The position numbers were made by a program, and so were the translations under genes. From Xenopus tropicalis (taxonomy: Eukaryota > Chordata > Amphibia > Anura > Pipidae): a stretch of DNA of 64,000 nucleotides. Positions 18,638 to 52,520 of the stretch are shown piece by piece (positions within the stretch are counted from its first letter, which is position 1; each line of letters begins with the position of its first letter). The stretch spans positions 46,873,142-46,937,141 of the forward strand of contig NC_030677.2 in assembly GCF_000004195.4 (NCBI RefSeq), read 5' to 3'. The notes below the pieces were generated by a model. It saw nothing but the letters and a program-made list of their open reading frames with translations, ran no database searches and was not told where the DNA came from.

Positions 18638-18700
18638 TACATAGTAACATAGTAAGTTAGGTTGAAAAAAGACATACGTCTGGCACGTTATACAGATTCT
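18638..18700 (-). repeat. CR1 3' terminus fragment, antisense
   Basis: TACATAGTAACATAGTAAGT followed by TTAGGTTGAAAAAAGAC is the reverse complement of the CR1 3' end seen at 51885-51945 (GTCTTTTTTCAACCCTATGT). Only the last several dozen bases remain. Confidence 0.65.
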
Positions 18701-21700: not shown

Positions 21701-22316
21701 TTTCCAAAGAAACCTCGATAACAGATTGTTTTTTCTTTAAAGATGATAAAACCTCTTGTGCAAGATCTCTGCTTTTCTCTATGATTAATTAAATGGCAGC
21801 AGGTGTAGGGGGAGTCAATGATTTCAGACATCTGAATGCCAGAGGCAGAAATGGTGTGCATATAAGTCTATGCTAATGCATGTCTAGTGATCAGACTGCA
21901 ATACAGATATTTCTATCTATCTATATATATATATATATAAAACTCAGGAATAGGTATTTTTATTTGCAAGATATTAACCAGCCACTTATATGTCATTAAA
22001 CATATTGAAAAGTACTTATTTGTGTACAAAATAAGATTGTTAAAATTGTTTATTTATAAAACACAAATATATACCCCAGTACTGCACAAGTAAATGGGGA
22101 GAACACAATGACAGGCAGAACAGAAGGATGATAGGCAGAAAAAAACCATTACTAATGATGAAACAAGCATTAATCAAGAGACAGAGCCAGAGGCCTTTCT
22201 CATGGCAGTTTATAATCTAAAGTTCCAGTTACAAATACAAATTGAAGCAGGTAGTAGTGTTGCACATTAGTTATGTTAGACATGTACCCAGTAAAGGTGG
22301 GTTATAAAGCAGGAAA
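18701..22316. other. Unannotated sequence with a GC-rich patch and a microsatellite
   Basis: About 18820-19020 is unusually GC-rich, with many CCCC and GGGG runs, and may be a dispersed repeat of unknown family. GAGGGGTGCCTAAC at 20369-20382 is a word shared with the palindromic TTAA family at 9710, a likely small fragment. CTAT/TA simple repeats lie at about 21910-21940. About 20700-20960 is a less AT-rich block of unknown nature. No gene is recognised. Confidence 0.4.
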
Positions 22317-22445
22317 GGCATTCCCCAACCTCACTGCCCTCACTGTGAAAAACTACCTATGATGCTTCATATGAAAGTTTTGCTCCTCTAATCTAAAGGG
22401 GTGGCCTCTGGTGTGCTGATCGTTTTTATGGGAAAAAAGAACACC
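22317..22445 (-). pseudogene. CR1 ORF2 C-terminal fragment, antisense
   Basis: GGCATTCCCCAACCTCACTG, CCCTCACTGTGAAAAACT and CTCTAATCTAAAGGGGTGGC are the reverse complement of CR1 ORF2 C-terminal sequence at about 51580-51690. It is a short dead fragment. A hAT-like MITE lies 50 bp further right. Confidence 0.7.
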
Positions 22446-27334: not shown

Positions 27335-27567
27335 AAAAATTGTTGTTCAGTGTATTACTTTTCTACTGAATCCCCAGCTTCCTTTTATAGTGTTCTGTTA
27401 TCCCAAAACCACCAACATTTTAAGCCAATATAGTTACACAGTTACATAGTTAAGTTGGGTTGAAAAAAGACCATCAAGTTCAACCCTTCCAAGTGAACTC
27501 CAGCGCGCACATATAGAGCCATACCGACCTATATGCCCATATACACATATACCATACCCTTTAAAAT

Positions 27568-27757
27568 TAGTGATGAGCAAATCTGTGAAATGCAGGTACT
27601 GTGCAACTTTTTTGACGTGGCCACGCTTTTTTTGCCTCAGCCACACTTTCTTTGACACTGCTCCTTTCTTCATGCAACTGCGCCTTTTTTTATGCAAAAG
27701 CATATTTTTCACAGCAAAATTTTGTTGCACTTTTGCAAAAAAATGTGCTTAACACTA
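27568..27757. mobile_element. hAT-like MITE inside the CR1 fragment
   Basis: TAGTGATGAGCAAATCTGTG at 27568 is the family terminus. The right end GCTTAACACTA (ending 27757) is a diverged form of GCTCATCACTA. CR1 3' UTR sequence continues on both sides. No exact duplication is visible. Confidence 0.6.
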
Positions 27758-27848
27758 ACTAGCATCAATACTAACTGTAGATTTTAGTATCACAATAGCC
27801 TTGGATACTATGCTTGTTCAAGAACTCATCCAGGCCGCTCTTATAGGC

Positions 27849-28622
27849 ATTATAGGCATCTCATCCTATTCCGACTGGACTACTGCAACCTGCTACTAAC
27901 CGGCCTCCCTAACTCCCATCTTTCCCCCCTACAGTCTATATTAAATACTGCTGCCAGAATTCTCCTCATCCAGGAGAGTTCAGGCCCTTCCCCTGCTAAA
28001 GTCCTTATCATGGCTTCCTATTAAACAAAGAATATCTTACAAACTCCTTCTCTTAACCTTCAAAGCCCTCCATTCCTCTGCTCCTCACTACATCTCTTCT
28101 CTTGTGTCTCTGTACGTTCCTGGCCTTCATTCCTCACAGAGCAATTGTTTGGTTGCGCCCCCCACTACTACTGCTGTTTCCCGCCTTAAACCTTTCTGCC
28201 TGGCTGCCCCTTACATTTGGAATGCCCTCCCTGATTTCCTCCGGAGAGAATCCTCCCTCAGTCTTTTTAAAATTAAACTAAAAGACTACCTTTTGGCGCA
28301 CTCACCCAGCACCTGATCTGGGATCTAGCGCTTATATTGTAGTGTCACCCACTGTAACCTACAGCACTTATATTTGCCTATTTGTGTCTGTAAGTTACCC
28401 TCCCATATAGATTGTAAGCTCTACGGGGCAGGGACCTCAATCCTCTTTTGTCTTTGACTCTCAATTTATTGCAACTGTATTTATCTTGTATTTATTGTTT
28501 ATACTTTGTATTTATCTATTATTATCTTAATAATCCCCTGTTTGTATTAATGTATTCTACTGTACAGCGCTGCGTACATAAGTAGTGCTTTATAAATAAA
28601 CATATACATACATACATACATA
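27849..28622 (+). pseudogene. L2 LINE 3' fragment inserted into CR1
   Basis: The sense strand encodes the C-terminal tail of an L2-type reverse transcriptase polyprotein in broken frames: the DYCNLLLTGLP-like start near 27875, then APPTTTAVSRLKPFC, APYIWNALPDFLRR and SSLSLFKIKLKDYL at 28155-28300. The L2 3' UTR follows (TAGATTGTAAGCTCTACGGG at 28406), ending in AAGTAGTGCTTTATAAATAA and a (CATA)n tail to about 28622. CR1 resumes at once with ATTAACAGAATCTGCCATTA. It is 5'-truncated, as is usual for LINEs. Confidence 0.8.
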
Positions 28623-29410
28623 CATTAACAGAATCTGCCATTACAACATTACTCAGAAGGGCATTCAACAACCTCACTGCCCTCCCAGTGAAAAAACACC
28701 TACGCTGCTTAAAATGTTCCATTCCCCTAATCTAAAGGGGTGGCCTCTGGTTTGATAATCCTTTTTACTGGAAAAAGAACATCCCTATCTTTCTATAATC
28801 CCCTCTAATGTACTTGTACAGAGTAATCATGTCCCCTCTCAAGCACCTTTTTTTGCCAGAGAAAACAACCCCAACCTTGACAGTCTAACCTCATAGTTTA
28901 AATCTTCCATCCCCTTAACCAGTTTAGTTGCACGTCTCTGCACTCTCTCCAGCTCATTAATATCCTTCTTAAGGACTGGAGCCCAAAACTGCACTGCATA
29001 CTCAAGTTGAGGCCTTACCAGGGCAAAATTATGTTTTCATCTCTTGAGTCAATGTCCTTTTTGGACATCCTGCATCAAACTTTTAGTTTTGCACAAAAAT
29101 CAGCAAACATAGTAACTGTACTTTCAATGCCCACCTCCAGGTCATTAATAAAGTTAAAAAGCAAAAGACCAAGGACTGACCCCTGCGGTACTCCACTAAC
29201 AACACTGGCCAATTAAAAAATGTTCCATTTACCACCACTCTTTGAAATCTATTGTTCAGCCAGTTCTCTATTCAATTAGTCTGGCAAGATCTCTTATGCA
29301 TAAAACCACGTGGCACAGACTAATAGTATTGTGATTTGCAATGTATTCAAGTATCCTATCCCTTCTTACCCCTTCCAAAAGCATTTCTACCACTGATGTC
29401 AGACTAACAT

Positions 29411-33982: not shown

Positions 33983-35420
33983 TTAGTCTTTCCACCCTTA
34001 TTTACTGGTAAAGCAAACAAGACGCTTTATACATCTTTAAGCAGTGATATCTAACCTCTGTAGTTACTCTTGATCACTAATACTTACCAAATCTTTCTCC
34101 ATTTGTTTTTGGTTAAAGCAACTGCCAGTGGAGCTAACAAGGCCCACAAAAAGGTCAGTGGATGTAGACCACTGAAGCAGGGTACGGTCACACATGGCCA
34201 AGTGACTGAATCAGTGTGCAACTATTTAAATGATCAGTGATCAAATATGTGGCCAAATTGCCCAATAGTAGGTTAGTCAAGCAGTGTCCTAATCAACTAC
34301 ATTTCCTGAATATCAAGTTATCAAGATATTTTGTGTCTCTATTACTCCCAGGAAGCCTTAAAGATTGTTCAAGTCCAAAGTGCAGTTGTTTAATGCAGTA
34401 TTTCAAGGTTTAGAATTTGTTGTTAAATTAAAAAATTGCTTGTACCAGTAACGCCAAGAAATGAAAAGTCCACAATACCCAAGTGCTAAAAACAGAGCGT
34501 ATATATTTATAACACAACTTTATTAACTATATAACTTGACAATGATCTATGCGCAGTATGTCTGCCATGGACATTACTGTTTGTTATTTTTATGAACCGG
34601 CTACAACAGAGAAAGAATATATTCAGCTGATAATCAAGTTGTGTCTGAACTAAGATTATCGGTGTAATTTCCCAGCTGCAAATTATGAATTTTTGGTCTG
34701 CCATTGTTCATTAACAACCAGTAAACCAAATACTAGATTTTTTTTTGCTTTAAATTTAAAAATAAAACAAGTGTGATATATCTGACTTCTTTATAATGTT
34801 AACATTTATAATGTATGTCTTTGTCCCTTGCTTTGTCTATTATTTATCATATCCAGTTCTGAGAACAAAGAGTAGTGAGTCTGTCATTTTACAAAATTAT
34901 GAATAATATCAATCACGGAAATTTACAGCTTACTTAAACACAGAGCTCTTTTAAAAAAAATATGCATTGCATCATAATGCTGCATAGGATATGATGAAAA
35001 GGTAACAACAGATGTAAAATATTTTTATGGGATTTAATGGACAGCACATAAGCATTGAAGAAATATACATTTTTTATTATGGAACAAAAGAAAAACAGTT
35101 ATGACAGCTGTGTTATATAGAACGAAGAATAAACTTTCAAATATTCTATACTGAAAAGTATGTTCTGTCCATGGATACAGTAAACTTGCTCCAAAGAAAA
35201 TCAGATTTTCATAATGCCATTAACACAGTGTGTATTGGCTTGCTGAAAAAGATGGAACCTCCATTCTGAAATCTTTGGGATGAAATTTGGACACGGATAG
35301 CACACAAAATTGATGCATTTGAGTTTTTTTTATGGTTTAATTTGATTGAATTCTTTTATTCAAATTTATACGAACTAAAAAAACTAAACTAAAATTCACA
35401 AATTTGAAAATTAATACATA
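33983..35420. other. Unannotated AT-rich sequence
   Basis: No gene or repeat is recognised. Confidence 0.4.
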
Positions 35421-36004
35421 GGGGCACATTTACTAATCCACGAACGTCCGAAAAGCGTCCGAATGCGTTTTTTTCGTAATGATCGGTATTTTGCAATTTT
35501 TTCGTAAATTGACGCGACTTTTTCGTAGCCATTACGACTTGCTCGTAAATTGACGCAACTTTTTCGTAGCCGTAGCGCCGAGTACGAAAGTTTCGGATTC
35601 ATTCAAACTTCAGTATCGTGACTTTCCTTGGGCCAGGTTGGAGCTGCAGAGTGCCATTGAGCCCTATGGGAGACTTTCCTTGGGCCAGGTTGGAGCTGCA
35701 GAGTGCCATTGAGTCCTATGGGAGGCTTCCAAAATCATGCAAAGTCTGAAAGTTTTGCCCGCAGTTTACGAGCGCTCAATACGAAAAAGTCGCGACAAGA
35801 TACGAGCATATCGTAACGGCTACGAAAAAGTCGCGACTTTTCGCGCAAATCGTAATGGTTACGAAAAAGTCGCGACAATTTACGAAAAAGTCGTGACGGC
35901 GACAAAAAAAATCGCAAAAAATACGAAAAAGTCGCAAAACGTTCGTTTCCAATCAGATTTTATCCCATTCGGGATTCGGATTCGTGGATTAGTAAATCAG
36001 CCCC
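35421..36004 (-). mobile_element. Harbinger-like MITE with two 52-bp internal units
   Basis: It starts GGGGCACATTTACTAATCCA and ends TGGATTAGTAAATCAGCCCC, with ATA on both flanks (35418-35420, 36005-36007). The body is full of ACGAAAAAGTCGCGAC / GTCGCGACTTTTTCGT inverted words. Two tandem copies of the 52-bp segment that is amplified at 14465 lie at 35621-35729, in reverse orientation. Confidence 0.8.
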
Positions 36005-47136: not shown

Positions 47137-47725
47137 GGGGCTGATTTACTAAGACACGAATTCGAATCCGAATTGGAAAAATTCCGATTGGAAAACGAAC
47201 ATTTTGCAACTTTTTCATATTTTTTGCGATTTTTTCAGCGCCTTTACGACTTTTCGGAAATTGTCGCGACTTTTTCGTTACCCATACAATTTTCGCGAAA
47301 AAACGCGAGTTTTTCGTAGCCATTACGATTCGCTCGTATCTTGTCGCGACTTTTTCGTATTGAGCGCTCGTAAGCAGCGGGTGAAACTTTCAGACTTAGC
47401 ATGATTTTGGAAGCCTCCCATAGGACTCAATGGCACCCTGCAGCTCCAACCTGGCCCAAGAAAAGTCACCATACTGAAGCTTGAATGAATCCGAACGCTA
47501 CGAAAAAATCGCAACATTTTGCGCAACTTTCGGAATGGCTACGAAAAAGGCACGACTTTTCGCGCAAGTTTTAACTCTATGAAAAAATCGCCAGATTTTG
47601 CGCAACATTCGGATGGCAACGAAAAAGTCGCGATAATTTTCCGAAAAAATCGCCAAATACCGATCATTACGAAAAAAACTCAATCGGACGCATTCGGCCG
47701 GTTCGTGAGTAAGTAAATGGGCCCC
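47137..47725 (+). mobile_element. Harbinger-like MITE with one 52-bp unit, TAA duplication
   Basis: It starts GGGGCTGATTTACTAAGACA and ends GTAAGTAAATGGGCCCC. TAA is exact at 47134-47136 and 47726-47728. It contains one copy of the segment amplified at 14465 (about 47413-47465) and many TCGCGACTTTTTCGT-type inverted words. It is the best single-unit reference for the minisatellite origin. Confidence 0.82.
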
Positions 47726-47866
47726 TAAATGTTGTTTAATATTTCACAAACCATTGGATGGACCCTGCCATGCTGTCCCAAAATAGGGGAGATGGTCTAA
47801 AGGCTACTAGGGTGAATTTTAGCTGTGATGCTCCTGAAAATACATTAACGGGGCATAACCTGCCGC

Positions 47867-48804
47867 ATGTATGCAGTTGTGGAACAACAGTTCCAAAGTG
47901 CATACCTCTGTTGTGGATGTGAGCGAGTTGCCACTTTAGAGGCTCGCGTTAGAGCACTAGAGGAACAAGTTGCAACACTGCGTTCTATTGACAATCTTGA
48001 AAGAAGTCTCTTGCTAACTGAACAAGAACTAGCGGGGTCAGATAGTATGGGGGGAGGGGAGCAAGGAAAGGATGATAGGGCAGTAAGCTGGGTGACAGTT
48101 AGGAAATCGAGTGTGGGGGAAAAAAAAGGGAGGCTGCTCCAGGGTTTGCGCATCCCAACAGATTTGCCAGATTGTGTGAAGAAGATGGGAGTGTGAACTC
48201 TGGACTGGCGGTTCTAGATGAGGCTGATCTCTCTAACAGCCGGGAGACCAGTTTCTCTAGTAGTGGTGGGGAGGAGAGCAGAGCTAGGCCTAAACAGATG
48301 GTGGTCATAGGGGATTCGATCATTAGGAAAGTGGACAGGGTAATCTGTCGAGCGGATCGCTTCAACCGGACAGTTTGCTGTCTTCCTGGTGCCAGGGTTC
48401 GGCATGTGGTTGATCGGGTCGACACATTATTGGGAGGGGCTGGGCATGACCCGGCTGTCTTGGTACATATCGGTACTAACGACAAAATGAACGGTAGGTG
48501 GGGGACCTTAAAGAGTGAGTTCAGGGATCTAGGCTCTAAAATTAAGCAAAGGTCCTCCAATGTCATTTTTTCGGAAATTTTGCCGGTGCCGCGTGCTAGT
48601 TTAGGGAGACAGCGGGAGCTTAGGGAGCTAAATGCGTGGCTAAAGTCTTGGTGTAGGAAGGAAGGGTTTGGGTTCCTAGAGCACTGGGCTGACTTTTCTT
48701 TGTGGTACAATCTATACAGCCCTGACGGATTGCACCTCAATGGAAGGGGGTCTACTGTGCTAGGGGAGAGAATGGTTAAGAGGCTGGAGGAGTGTTTAAA
48801 CTAG
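47867..48804 (+). pseudogene. CR1 ORF1: coiled coil plus SGNH esterase-like domain, frameshifted
   Basis: The first frame runs 47867-48196. It opens with a Cys-containing segment (CCGC at residues 15-18) and a leucine-rich coiled coil (about residues 20-50: VATLEARVRALEEQVATL). The second frame, entered somewhere in 48116-48171 and ending at 48804, encodes the esterase-like domain. Numbered from 48172, GDS (47-49) supplies the nucleophile Ser49, CLPG supplies Gly73, GTND supplies Asn103, and DGLH supplies Asp185 and His188: the four SGNH blocks in order. The two frames overlap, and a homopolymer stretch (GGGGG, eight A, GGG at 48115-48130) lies where they must join, so slippage there is the likely break. 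ORF1 of CR1/L3 elements is taken to act as an RNA-binding and esterase protein in the retrotransposition particle. Its stop overlaps the ORF2 frame. Confidence 0.85.
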
Positions 48805-50255
48805 ACAAGGGGGGGGTTGGTAAGCTAGATTCTTATGGGAGAGCTAGTGTAGATGGGGCAGTGGGACCAGTAAAGGGTTGTGGGGGAGGAGTGAGGGGGG
48901 CATATAGTTTATCAGATAAGGAGCTTCCATTGTTACAAGGGAAACAGACTAATTTTCACCTTAGCTCTAACTGTCCTTTGGCTAATGTAAGCATCAGAGG
49001 AAGAAGTAGTAATCTCCGCTGCATGCTGGCTAATGCGCGTAGCTTGTCGGGAAAAATAGGGGAGCTGCAGGCTATTGCATGTATTGAAAATTATGACTTA
49101 ATTGGTATCACTGAGACCTGGTGGGATGAAAAATGCGACTGGGCTGTGAATTTAAATGGGTATACGCTTTTTAGGAGGGACAGAGGGATTAAAAAGGGTG
49201 GAGGGGTTTGTCTTTATGTAAAGTCAGATTTAAAGCCATGTAATAAAGACATTACAAATGAAAACGTTGAATCTCTTTGGGTAGAAATTTCAGTAGGGCT
49301 GAAGGTCACAAAGAAAATGATCATTGGTGTATGCTATAAACCACCCCGTATAGATGAGGGGGATGAGGCCCAGCTACTTTTGCAAATGGAGGAGGCTTCA
49401 AAATTGGGTCAAGTTGTTATTATGGGGGACTTTAATTATCCGGACATTGACTGGAGTAATGGGGTGGCTAAGTCAGAAAAAGCTAGTAGGTTTGTAAATA
49501 TGCTAAATGACAACTTTTTATTTCAGGTGGTTCAAGAACCTACTCGGAATGAGTCTATTTTGGACCTGGTAATATCTAATAATACTGAACTTATCTCTAA
49601 CATTTGTGTGGGTGAGCATTTGGGGAACAGTGATCACAACACGGTCTCCTTTGAGATAATGCTACAGAGACAGCGCTATAAGGGAGTAACTAAAACGCTC
49701 AATTTTAGACGTGCAGACTTTGCCAGTATAAGGGCATCTCTGCAATGTGTCAACTGGGAAAGGCTTTTCATGGGGTTAGACACAGAAGGAAAATGGAACA
49801 TCTTTAAAACATTGCTTTGCAAGTATACACAACAGTATATTCCCCTTGTAAGCAAGGAGAGGCATCGCAAAGCAAAACCTTTATGGCTGAATAAAAGAGT
49901 TAAGGTCGAGGTTGGTAATAAAAAACGTGCTTTTAAAGCATTCAAGTTAGCTGGGACAGCGGAAACTTTCATCAGGTACAAGGAAGCAAATAAAGCATGC
50001 AAAAAAGCTATCAGGCAAGCTAAAATAGAGATGGAAAGGGATATTGCAGCAAGGAGTAAAAAGAATCCAAAATTATTTTTTAATTATGTGAATAGTAAAA
50101 AAATGAAGCAAGAAGGGGTGGGAACTTTATTATCATGGGGGGGTACGTTGGTTGATGAGAACAGGGAAAAAGCAGAAATTTTTCATCTGTCTATACATCT
50201 GAGGAGCCAGATAATGAAGGCTTCCCTTTTAATTTACCCAGTGCTAGTAATTTAG
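48792..50255 (+). CDS. CR1 ORF2 N-terminal part: endonuclease domain (frame broken at its end)
   Basis: The frame is open from 48780. No ATG occurs until residue 78 (49023; numbering from 48792), which lies inside the first strand of the endonuclease, so this is not a plausible start; expression by frameshifting or reinitiation from ORF1 is more likely. The apurinic/apyrimidinic-type endonuclease shows LANARS (79-84), ITETWW with catalytic Glu108, GDFN with Asp213 (212-215) and SDH (280-282) with His282, in the expected order. A basic linker (about 360-440) leads toward the reverse transcriptase. Around 50180 the frame shifts: in frame 2 the sequence SVYTSEEPDNEG follows, while in this frame the reading ends at 50255 in unrelated residues. 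A short deletion is the simplest cause. The product would nick target DNA to prime reverse transcription. Confidence 0.88.
   Translation: MFKLDKGGVGKLDSYGRASVDGAVGPVKGCGGGVRGAYSLSDKELPLLQGKQTNFHLSSNCPLANVSIRGRSSNLRCMLANARSLSGKIGELQAIACIENYDLIGITETWWDEKCDWAVNLNGYTLFRRDRGIKKGGGVCLYVKSDLKPCNKDITNENVESLWVEISVGLKVTKKMIIGVCYKPPRIDEGDEAQLLLQMEEASKLGQVVIMGDFNYPDIDWSNGVAKSEKASRFVNMLNDNFLFQVVQEPTRNESILDLVISNNTELISNICVGEHLGNSDHNTVSFEIMLQRQRYKGVTKTLNFRRADFASIRASLQCVNWERLFMGLDTEGKWNIFKTLLCKYTQQYIPLVSKERHRKAKPLWLNKRVKVEVGNKKRAFKAFKLAGTAETFIRYKEANKACKKAIRQAKIEMERDIAARSKKNPKLFFNYVNSKKMKQEGVGTLLSWGGTLVDENREKAEIFHLSIHLRSQIMKASLLIYPVLVI
48795..48801 (+). promoter_or_regulatory. Candidate -1 ribosomal frameshift heptamer T TTA AAC
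   Basis: In the ORF1 frame the final codons are TGT TTA AAC TAG. The heptamer T_TTA_AAC (X_XXY_YYZ) is in the right phase, one codon before the stop. Slipping back one base gives TTT AAA CTA, the ORF2 frame, which is open from 48780. After a 7-nt spacer there is a run of eight G (48809-48816), and further GGG runs follow to 48900. Function is inferred only. Confidence 0.55.
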
Positions 50256-51805
50256 CTACTGACGCGTGGGTCACTCAGGAGGAAATTAAAAAGAGACTTG
50301 AACATGTAAAGGTAAACAAAGGTCCAGGACCGGATGGGATTCATCCCAGGGTATTAAATGAGCTGAGCGCTGTGATTGCCAAGCCTCTTCACATAATTTT
50401 TCAGGATTCGTTGAGGTTTGGCATGGTGCCGAGAGACTGGCGGATTGCTAATGTGGTGCCATTATTTAAAAAGGGATCTCGTTCTCAGCCTGAAAACTAT
50501 AGGCCTGTTAGTCTGACATCAGTAGTAGGAAAGCTTCTGGAAGGGGTAATAAGGGATAGGATAGTTGAATACATTGCAGTTCACAATACTATTAGTTTGT
50601 GCCAGCATGGTTTTATGCGTAACAGATCTTGCCAGACTAATTTAGTTGCCTTTTATGAGGAGGTGAGCAGGAACCTTGATGCTGGAATGGCAGTTGATGT
50701 CATCTACTTAGATTTTGCTAAAGCGTTTGATACAGTACCTCACAGAAGGTTAATGATCAAATTGAGGAATATTGGCCTAGAACATAATATTTGTAATTGG
50801 ATAGAGAACTGGCTGAAGGATAGAGTACAAAGAGTGGTTGTAAATGGAACATTTTCTAATTGGGCCAGTGTGGTTAGTGGAGTACCGCAGGGGTCAGTCC
50901 TTGGTACTTTGCTTTTTAACTTGTTTATTAATGACCTGGAGGTGGGCATAGACAGTACTGTTTCTATTTTTGCTGATGACACTAAATTGTGCAAAACTAT
51001 AAGTTCCATGCAGGATGCTGCCGCTTTGCAGAGCGATTTGACAAAATTGGAAAACTGGGCAGCAAACTGGAAAATGAGGTTCAATGTTGACAAGTGCAAA
51101 GTTATGCACTTTGGTAGGAATAATATAAACGCAAACTATCTACTGAATGGTAGTGTGTTGGGGGTTTCCTTAATGGAGAAGGATCTAGGGGTTTTTGTAG
51201 ATCACAAGTTGTCCAATTCCAGGCAGTGTCATTCTGTGGCTACTACAGCAAATAAAGTGCTGTCTTGTATAAAAAAGGGCATTGACTCAAGGGATGAGAA
51301 CATATTTTTGCCGCTTTATAGGTCCCTGGTAAGGCCTCACCTTGAGTATGCAGTGCAGTTTTGGGCTCCAGTCCTTAAGAAGGATATTAATGAGCTGGAG
51401 AGAGTGCAGAGACGTGCAACTAAACTGGTAAAGGGGATGGAAGATTTAAGCTATGAGGTTAGACTGTCGAGGTTGGGGTTGTTTTCTCTGGAAAAGAGGC
51501 GCTTGCGAGGGGACATGATTACTCTGTACAAGTACATTAGAGGGGATTATAGGCAGTTGGGGGATGTTCTTTTTTCCCATAAAAACAATCAACGCACCAG
51601 AGGTCACCCCTTTAGATTAGAGGAACAGAGCTTCCATTTGAAGCAGCATAGGGGGTTTTTCACGGTGAGGGCAGTGAGGCTGTGGAATGCCCTTCCTAGT
51701 GATGTGGTAATGGCAGACTCTGTTAATGCCTTTAAGAGGGGCCTGGATGAGTTTTTGAACAAGCAGAATATCCAGGGCTATTGTGATACTAATATCTACA
51801 GTTAG
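50186..51805 (+). CDS. CR1 ORF2 C-terminal part: reverse transcriptase
   Basis: It continues ORF2 in another frame from about 50186; its first ATG is at 50372 and the end is a TAG at 51803-51805. Numbering from 50372, the motifs in order are NYRPVSLTS (42-50), QHGFMRNRSC (78-87), YLDFAKAFD (112-120) with catalytic Asp114, GVPQGSVLGTLLF (170-182) and FADD (200-203) with Asp202 and Asp203. Thr179 replaces the Pro usual in the PQGSVLGP motif. KGPGPDGIHP lies upstream of the first ATG at about 50316-50345. A C-terminal RRATKLV...LGLFSLEKRRLRGD region is typical of CR1. Reading is uninterrupted to the stop. It would perform target-primed reverse transcription of CR1 RNA. The shift from the endonuclease frame makes this copy probably inactive. 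Confidence 0.92.
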   Translation, partial: SVYTSEEPDNEGFPFNLPSASNLATDAWVTQEEIKKRLEHVKVNKGPGPDGIHPRVLNELSAVIAKPLHIIFQDSLRFGMVPRDWRIANVVPLFKKGSRSQPENYRPVSLTSVVGKLLEGVIRDRIVEYIAVHNTISLCQHGFMRNRSCQTNLVAFYEEVSRNLDAGMAVDVIYLDFAKAFDTVPHRRLMIKLRNIGLEHNICNWIENWLKDRVQRVVVNGTFSNWASVVSGVPQGSVLGTLLFNLFINDLEVGIDSTVSIFADDTKLCKTISSMQDAAALQSDLTKLENWAANWKMRFNVDKCKVMHFGRNNINANYLLNGSVLGVSLMEKDLGVFVDHKLSNSRQCHSVATTANKVLSCIKKGIDSRDENIFLPLYRSLVRPHLEYAVQFWAPVLKKDINELERVQRRATKLVKGMEDLSYEVRLSRLGLFSLEKRRLRGDMITLYKYIRGDYRQLGDVLFSHKNNQRTRGHPFRLEEQSFHLKQHRGFFTVRAVRLWNALPSDVVMADSVNAFKRGLDEFLNKQNIQGYCDTNIYS

Positions 51806-51919
51806 TATTAATGGTTGTATATATATAGTTTATGTATGTGAGTGTATAGATTGGTTAGTATAGGTTGTGTGCTGGGTTTACTCGGATGGGTTGAACTTGA
51901 TGGACAATGGTCTTTTTTC

Positions 51920-51950
51920 AACCCTATGTAACTATGTAACTATGTAACTA
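51920..51950 (+). repeat. CR1 3' terminal octamer repeats
   Basis: Three tandem CTATGTAA-type octamers end the element. Reversed copies of this end at 18638 and 27437 confirm it as the family terminus. Confidence 0.85.
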
Positions 51951-52520
51951 ACAAAACTAATTTGTTTTTTCTTGATTTTGATTTTTTAGCGCTAAAAGTC
52001 ACTCATAAAAAAGTCACGACTTTTACAAGATTTACTATGCAACAAAACTGGAACATCTAAAACTTGTCAAGATTATGTAAAAGTCAATAGCAGATGTCCC
52101 CCCTTACCACATCTTTCTTTGCTTCAAGGTTTTCGGATTTTAAGACAATATAAAACAGTTCCAGTCGAAAAAGTCTCTGTTTTCACAACTTTTCCATGAC
52201 TTTTTCAGTTCAGATTTTTTGATAAATGTCAAATATTCGTGGAAAATAGTTTCTTCGAATTGAAAAAATGCTAAAATTAGATGTGAGCTAATATGACTCA
52301 GTGTCTGATCGTTTGCCCTATGGCCAAGCAATTGGTTCCCATTATCACCCTTCTTGCCAAATGAGTGAATCTTCAGGTGAACTGTCAACTTTATTCAGAG
52401 AAGACCTACACATGTATAAATGTATGAATAACACTTTAATACAATAGTCGTACAAACAGGGTGAACAAACATAGCAATAAATAAAAATTACACTAATTTA
52501 TAATGATTTGCAGTACTTTA
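51951..52520. other. Unannotated; possible old palindromic repeat
   Basis: GTCACGACTTTTAC and CATGACTTTTTCAG words at 52010-52210 resemble the MITE interiors at 35421 and 47137 and the 4370-4740 region, but no ends are visible. Confidence 0.35.

What the first reader, a model, noticed from the sequence alone, without database searches (positions are those of the whole stretch)
48780..48900. Canonical -1 frameshift site at the ORF1/ORF2 junction of a frog CR1 LINE
Seen: ORF1 ends TGT TTA AAC TAG. T_TTA_AAC fits the X_XXY_YYZ rule in the ORF1 frame and sits immediately before the stop. The -1 frame (TTT AAA CTA) is ORF2, open from 48780 after an in-frame TAA at 48777. The two frames overlap by only 25 nt, and the heptamer is inside that overlap. 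A 7-nt spacer leads to an eight-G run, then many GGG runs (to about 48900) that could form a G-quadruplex or stable stem. ORF2 has no ATG until residue 78, inside the endonuclease fold. Established: UUUAAAC is one of the most efficient -1 slippery heptamers, with 5-9 nt spacers to a structure. Inference: ORF2 is made as an ORF1-ORF2 fusion by programmed frameshifting. The alternative is termination-reinitiation at the overlapping stop.
Basis: partly seen in the sequence, partly recalled or inferred. Interest (0 to 1): 0.75.

Follow-up and report, generated by a model that had tools for sequence, protein, structure and literature searches.

The report
Frameshift site in frog CR1 retrotransposon
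A jumping gene in a frog genome appears to make its copying enzyme by having ribosomes slip back one base at the end of its first gene, and the protein trace of that slip site recurs in related elements from frogs, fishes, sharks, rays and a turtle.

Summary
In a decayed frog CR1 LINE, ORF1 ends TGT TTA AAC TAG (48793-48804); T_TTA_AAC is in frame, ORF2 is open in -1 from 48780, and the overlap is 25 nt. The first ORF2 AUG is residue 82 (not 78), after three out-of-frame AUGs. Proteins of relatives support the site: of 76 ORF1-like hits, 45 reach the last two positions; 44 end Leu-Asn, one Leu-Ser. The residue before LN changed at least 17 times on a tree, across 11 types, yet was never E, K, Q, M or W, which lack pyrimidine-ending codons; none of the other 83 columns with 9 or more types does this. 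A dart-frog gene model reads GGVFKLG across the site in -1. Of five distant elements with junction DNA, two have ORF2 in -1 with U_UUU_UUA or A_AAA_AAC in the overlap; three have one in-frame UGA instead. A stem is not supported (z about 0); a G-quadruplex is untested. No vertebrate junction DNA beyond the window and no assay was available. Programmed -1 frameshifting giving an ORF1-ORF2 fusion is by far the best reading.

The parts
47867..48120 (+). 5' part of ORF1 (zinc finger and coiled-coil region), in a different frame from the esterase part in this copy; ends approximate
   Evidence: Read by eye; matches P0001 MYAVVEQQFQSAYLCCGCER...
48103..48804 (+). ORF1 esterase-domain frame, ends TGT TTA AAC TAG
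   Evidence: PF13472 E 2.5e-11; 96% identical to a X. tropicalis protein
48795..48801 (+). slippery heptamer T_TTA_AAC in the ORF1 frame
48802..48804 (+). ORF1 stop codon TAG
48780..48804 (+). overlap of ORF1 and ORF2 (-1) frames, 25 nt
48802..48808 (+). 7-nt spacer TAGACAA
48809..48900 (+). G-run-rich stretch, possible but unproven 3' stimulator; no stable stem predicted
48780..50255 (+). ORF2 5' part, -1 frame: linker plus AP endonuclease; first ATG at 49023
   Evidence: (PF14529, PF03372)
50159..51805 (+). ORF2 3' part: reverse transcriptase, in another frame in this decayed copy
   Evidence: PF00078 E 1e-32
51924..51950 (+). 3'-terminal 8-bp repeats (CTATGTAA)x3.4, CR1-like 3' end

Best explanation
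A CR1 LINE makes ORF2p (endonuclease and reverse transcriptase) as an ORF1-ORF2 fusion by programmed -1 ribosomal frameshifting. After TTA and AAC are decoded, both tRNAs slip back to TTT and AAA on T_TTA_AAC, immediately before the ORF1 stop. Most ribosomes stop and give ORF1p; a minority give the fusion, as in retroviral gag-pol. Shown: anatomy, frames, lack of an ORF2 AUG near the junction in this copy, and a protein-level signature kept in vertebrate relatives. Inferred: that slippage occurs, its efficiency, and any stimulator.
For: Heptamer in frame and in the 25-nt overlap, ORF2 in -1. 44 of the 45 ORF1 relatives that reach the last two positions end LN, though members of alignment A1 share as little as 33% identity with the first; two outliers at 26% identity, with no Pfam hit at E 0.1, also end LN (P0187, P0188). 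The pre-LN column has 11 residue types, at least 17 parsimony changes and 0 of 44 E/K/Q/M/W, against 32 of 44 and 26 of 44 at the two positions before it; it is the only zero column of 84 with 9 or more types, and of 47 with 16 or more changes. P0095 (Ranitomeya imitator) carries GGVFKLG in the -1 frame; if its ORF1 frame ends Leu-Asn-stop, the bases can only be TTTAAAC or TTTAAAT followed by TAG, both X_XXY_YYZ (and the codon table). Three out-of-frame AUGs precede the first ORF2 AUG here, and a Met at that place is found in 4 of 13 aligned ORF2s. DNA relatives: L003 has U_UUU_UUA, 8-11 nt, then a 9-bp hairpin; L004 has A_AAA_AAC; both have ORF2 in -1.
Against: No frameshifting measured. No vertebrate junction DNA other than this copy; protein data cannot tell TTA from other Leu codons, AAC from AAT, or NNT from NNC. 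The zero count weakens at lower thresholds: 3 of 124 columns with 8 or more types and 8 of 176 with 6 or more also lack E/K/Q/M/W, and 2 of 77 with 14 or more changes. LN is fixed within the 44 because they were chosen for it. No stable stem downstream. One relative ends LS (P0050). Nine of 12 aligned ORF2 relatives are annotated from a Met upstream of that position, and in L003 an AUG in the ORF2 frame lies 29 nt after the ORF1 stop, so reinitiation could serve some. The -1 relation is not universal: three of five distant elements have ORF2 in frame after a UGA. Chance of a heptamer in the overlap is 0.04, 0.05 and 0.14 for window, L003 and L004. The window copy is dead.
Confidence: 0.86

Rival explanations
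1. Termination-reinitiation or other unconventional initiation: the ribosome ends ORF1 at TAG and restarts on ORF2, at a non-AUG codon such as GTG 48792 or at AUG 49023. The conserved bases would be a reinitiation element.
For: SART1 and human L1 are reported to translate ORF2 by ORF1-dependent reinitiation or other unconventional initiation (passages of PMC2881922, and PMC5972666). GTG 48792 lies in the overlap. L003 has a suitable AUG, and 9 of 12 aligned ORF2 relatives are annotated from an upstream Met.
Against: No AUG at the junction in the window; three out-of-frame AUGs precede the first in-frame one, which lies three residues before an invariant endonuclease Asn. A reinitiation element would not need X_XXY_YYZ grammar in frame.
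Confidence: 0.08
2. Leu-Asn is a conserved C-terminal peptide motif of ORF1p, and the heptamer is a by-product.
For: LN is kept at protein level, and the protein data alone cannot show the codons.
Against: The preceding residue is free in chemistry (G, Y, C, T, S, D, H, I, L, F, A) but never one without a pyrimidine-ending codon, which points to a base-level limit. LN persists where the esterase is no longer recognised by Pfam (P0187, P0188). The -1 frame reads FKL in window and dart frog.
Confidence: 0.04
3. Chance heptamer in a decayed copy; the real frame relation differs in live copies.
For: The copy is dead, and the chance of a heptamer in the overlap is about 0.04.
Against: An ORF1 relative 96% identical (P0001, 11 member sequences) ends in the same EECLN, and 44 of 45 relatives that reach the end close with LN.
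Confidence: 0.02

Closest known systems
CR1 clade non-LTR retrotransposons (ORF1 zinc finger, coiled coil and esterase; ORF2 endonuclease and RT; 8-bp 3' repeats)
   Same: Esterase, Cys-rich finger, endonuclease, RT and 3' octamers are present. Best PDB relative is 4c1b, named ORF1-encoded protein; that it is the zebrafish ZfL2-1 esterase of PMC3905857 (abstract and passages seen) is recalled, not shown by the call
   Different: Passages seen on vertebrate CR1 describe ORF1 and ORF2, those on insect CR1 a single-ORF element; none of these passages gives a frameshift mechanism
-1 frameshift signals of retroviruses and coronaviruses (X_XXY_YYZ, spacer, structure; from general knowledge)
   Same: In-frame heptamer (UUUAAAC, and in relatives UUUUUUA and AAAAAAC), ORF2 in -1, position at the end of a gag-like ORF
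   Different: Sits in a LINE; no stable stem found in the window copy; G-rich stretch instead
SART1 and L1 ORF2 translation (reinitiation type; passages in PMC2881922 and PMC5972666)
   Same: Two-ORF LINE in which ORF2 needs an unconventional step after ORF1
   Different: Those are described with an ORF2 start (SART1 UAAUG); here there is no AUG at the junction
HeT-A gag frameshift in Drosophila telomeric LINEs (passage in PMC5009743)
   Same: Frameshifting in a non-LTR element
   Different: It serves gag itself; HeT-A encodes no reverse transcriptase of its own

Membership tests
CR1 clade LINE | ORF1 with Cys-rich finger and GDSL/SGNH esterase | tested here: met
   the finger was read from the alignment, not from a family match
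CR1 clade LINE | ORF2 with AP endonuclease and RT | tested here: met
CR1 clade LINE | Short 8-bp 3'-terminal repeats | tested here: met
   (CTATGTAA)x3.4; avian CR1 octamers described in passages of PMC2612034
CR1 clade LINE | RT phylogeny inside CR1 | not tested
   No RT tree was built
Programmed -1 frameshift signal | X_XXY_YYZ in the 0 frame inside the ORF overlap | tested here: met
Programmed -1 frameshift signal | Downstream ORF open in -1 without its own start codon near the junction | tested here: met
Programmed -1 frameshift signal | Heptamer conserved in relatives | tested here: met
   Protein level only: 44 of 45 LN, pre-LN column; no vertebrate junction DNA beyond the window
Programmed -1 frameshift signal | 3' stimulatory structure at 5-9 nt | tested here: inconclusive
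   Window: none predicted (z 0.19, 0.35), G-quadruplex untested; L003: 9-bp hairpin 11 nt (8 nt with three more pairs) after the heptamer, z -1.80
Programmed -1 frameshift signal | Measured -1 product | not testable with these tools
   Needs a reporter or mass spectrometry
Stop-start reinitiation (SART1 type) | AUG overlapping or next to the ORF1 stop, in the ORF2 frame | tested here: not met
   218 nt lie between the stop and the first in-frame AUG, with three out-of-frame AUGs among them

The most novel reading that the evidence does not exclude
CR1-group LINEs in general make ORF2 as a gag-pol-like ORF1-ORF2 fusion by recoding at the ORF1 stop. Vertebrate CR1s keep U_UUA_AAC by base-level selection, for several hundred million years if inherited vertically. 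Distant relatives use other -1 heptamers (U_UUU_UUA, A_AAA_AAC), and others with a PHD-like ORF1 instead keep a leaky in-frame UGA-CUN right before the endonuclease.
Probability: 0.5. Interest if true: 0.78.

Novelty: new variant of a known kind. Interest (0 to 1): 0.66.

Why it matters
How two-ORF LINEs make their reverse transcriptase is a long-standing question; for L1 and SART1, ORF1-dependent reinitiation or other unconventional initiation has been proposed. A conserved frameshift in CR1, a major vertebrate LINE group, would mean that ORF2p is a fusion to the esterase protein at a fixed ratio. That changes how CR1 particles should be reconstituted and annotated, and it can be tested with one dual-luciferase experiment.

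Tried and rejected
Vertebrate CR1 DNA was sought in viral contigs, genome contigs with the ORF1 alignment, and, with P0001 only, plasmids and phages: no relative found. Genome contigs with the ORF2 alignment gave 7 distant loci; six hold an ORF1/ORF2 junction, and L007 starts inside ORF2. blastn of 47501-51960 against the window found no second junction copy; the other CR1 pieces are 3' fragments.

RNA fold of the window's downstream region: no better than shuffles, so a stem is rejected. The UGA loci L001, L005 and L006 show no strong stem either (z 0.72, 0.57 and -0.88); L004 has z -1.55.

Looking for -1-frame readings of the junction in the 120 ORF2 hits listed of 138: judged by position, only P0095 has FK[LPQRH] in a junction-like place.

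Literature: ten searches, some with only part of the papers listed (25 of 27, 15 of 19, 15 of 17). I read passages of eleven papers (for PMC3905857 also the abstract). No listed title or passage that I read describes a CR1 ORF1/ORF2 frameshift. Kapitonov and Jurka 2003 is not held; Haas 1997 and 2001 (seen only as references) and Kajikawa 1997 (recalled) were not read, so the claim is limited to this library.

Full report
What is there. The junction is as described. ORF1 reads ...GAG GAG TGT TTA AAC TAG to 48804. The heptamer TTTAAAC is at 48795-48801 with its first T as the third base of a codon. ORF2 is open in the -1 frame from 48780 to 50255, so the overlap is 25 nt. The first ORF2-frame ATG is residue 82 at 49023. 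Three ATGs between the stop and that point are in another frame and give ORFs of 5, 6 and 1 codons. The element has the marks of a CR1 LINE: ORF1 esterase (PF13472), ORF2 endonuclease and RT, and 8-bp 3' repeats; no RT tree was built. The copy is decayed in both ORFs. The ORF1 piece is 96% identical to a Xenopus tropicalis protein.

Chance. In-frame X_XXY_YYZ heptamers occur at 5 of 720 in-frame positions of this element, and the overlap offers 6 positions, so one copy alone gives P about 0.04. Conservation must decide.

Conservation of the end of ORF1. Two protein searches gave 76 different ORF1-like proteins (56, 20 more; in the latter only the 7994 candidates sharing most words were scored). 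Forty-four end in Leu-Asn. One more reaches that position and ends Leu-Ser (P0050). The other 31, by my reading, stop short or have other tails such as gene-model joins. Named sources among the LN enders include Xenopus, Leptobrachium, Hyla, Paramormyrops, Latimeria, Scyliorhinus, Hypanus, Mustelus, Stegostoma, Pristis, Acipenser and Gopherus. In alignment A1 (24 proteins) the members share as little as 33% identity with the first, and L and N are invariant after a variable tail. Two divergent proteins, P0187 and P0188 (26% identical, no Pfam hit at E 0.1), also end LN.

Base-level signature. If the rule is T_TTA_AAC, the codon before LN must end in T, so E, K, Q, M and W cannot occur there. 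Of the 44, the residues are G 12, Y 8, C 7, T 5, S 4, D 2, H 2, and I, L, F, A 1 each: 0 of 44 forbidden. At the two positions before it the same five residues make up 32 of 44 and 26 of 44. Among 84 alignment columns with 9 or more residue types this is the only one without them; with 8 or more types there are 3 such columns of 124, with 6 or more 8 of 176. On a FastTree tree the column needs at least 17 changes, and it is the only one of 47 columns with 16 or more changes that never enters the forbidden set (2 of 77 with 14 or more). The 44 were chosen for ending in LN, not for the residue before it, and include some near-duplicates such as P0016 and P0052. Protein data cannot separate NNT from NNC or identify the Leu and Asn codons.

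The other frame. P0095, a Ranitomeya imitator gene model, contains GGVFKLG in a G-rich context; the window's -1 frame reads GGVFKLD. If the dart-frog ORF1 also ends Leu-Asn-stop, only TTTAAAC or TTTAAAT followed by TAG fits both frames; both are X_XXY_YYZ heptamers. Its DNA was not seen.

DNA of distant relatives. The ORF2 alignment found seven contigs in prokaryote MAGs, which I take for eukaryote contamination. Six contain a junction, from five elements. L003 has an esterase ORF1, ORF2 in -1, a 34-nt overlap, and U_UUU_UUA ending one codon before the stop. A 9-bp hairpin follows after 11 nt, or 8 nt counting three further pairs (z -1.80). However, an AUG in the ORF2 frame lies 29 nt after its stop. 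L004, whose ORF1 matches no Pfam family, has ORF2 in -1 with A_AAA_AAC and C_CCA_AAA in frame in a 52-nt overlap, and no Met in the first 110 ORF2 residues read. Chance for a heptamer in these overlaps is 0.05 and 0.14, so each adds only modestly. L001 and L002 (99.6% identical over 2634 nt, so one element) and L005 and L006 (ORF2 51% identical) have ORF1 and ORF2 in one frame with a single UGA between; L001 has a Met at ORF2 residue 38. The ORF1s of L005 and L006 resemble the PHD family but score below its cut-off (23.9 and 20.8 against 24 bits). Their UGA is followed by CUA and CUC, and the endonuclease begins within about three codons. That UGA has survived great divergence and suggests readthrough. 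So the -1 relation is not universal in the wider group, but none of these three UGA elements has an AUG start right at the junction either.

Stimulator. The window region after the spacer is G-rich (7 runs of GGG+ in 100 nt, matched by 1.3% of 100-nt windows of the element) but poor in C, and folds no better than shuffles. A G-quadruplex is possible, not shown.

Mechanism. The best reading is programmed -1 frameshifting that yields an ORF1-ORF2 fusion. Shown: frames, heptamer, conservation signature, and no ORF2 AUG near the junction in this copy. Inferred: slippage itself, its rate, the stimulator. Termination-reinitiation remains the main rival because it is the proposed mode for SART1 and L1 (passages), and because 9 of 12 aligned ORF2 relatives are annotated from a Met further upstream.

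Known or new. -1 frameshifting is a classic device; that UUUAAAC is an efficient site is general knowledge. The recoding review PMC5009743 (passages only; its held text is cut) mentions non-LTR elements for HeT-A gag, and for TART and mammalian LINE ORF2 gives unknown or initiation-type modes. Ten literature searches (listed in Tried and rejected) found nothing on CR1 frameshifting; a key older CR1 paper is not held. Hence: new variant of a known kind, with the reservation that older CR1 papers may note the overlap.

Noticed in passing
L005:1490-1570 and L006:1195-1280: LINEs with a PHD-like ORF1 have ORF1 and ORF2 in one frame separated by one UGA followed by CUA or CUC; the endonuclease starts within about three codons after it, with no AUG in between. 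ORF2s are only 51% identical, so the UGA looks kept, suggesting stop readthrough.
   Followed up: partly
L001:1191-1290 and L002:311-420: Another LINE with a single in-frame UGA (UGA CAA) between ORF1 and ORF2; the two contigs are 99.6% identical copies of one element.
   Followed up: partly
L001-L007: LINE contigs of eukaryote type are binned in archaeal and bacterial MAGs (Thermoprotei, Thermocrinis, Bathyarchaeota, Flavobacteriaceae, Poribacteria, Gammaproteobacteria), probably contamination in the genome collection.
   Followed up: no
P0179, P0012, P0078 (protein hits): CR1-like proteins filed under Pseudomonas aeruginosa, the frog parasite Protopolystoma xenopodis and the plant Tanacetum; contamination or misassignment is likely, though a transfer between frog and parasite was not excluded.
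   Followed up: no
47140-47720 and 35419-35939: Palindrome-like repeat rich in TTTTTCG/CGAAAAA flanks the LINE on its 5' side, with further copies near 35.4-35.9 kb; it looks like a MITE.
   Followed up: no
18638-18673, 22311-22443, 27431-27860, 28623-29409 (- strand): Further CR1 pieces in the window, 3' fragments on the other strand, 81-91% identical; none holds a junction.
   Followed up: partly
48099-48800 (- strand): A 233-codon open frame runs antisense to ORF1; a X. tropicalis gene model (P0002) has used part of it. Probably a by-product of codon use.
   Followed up: no
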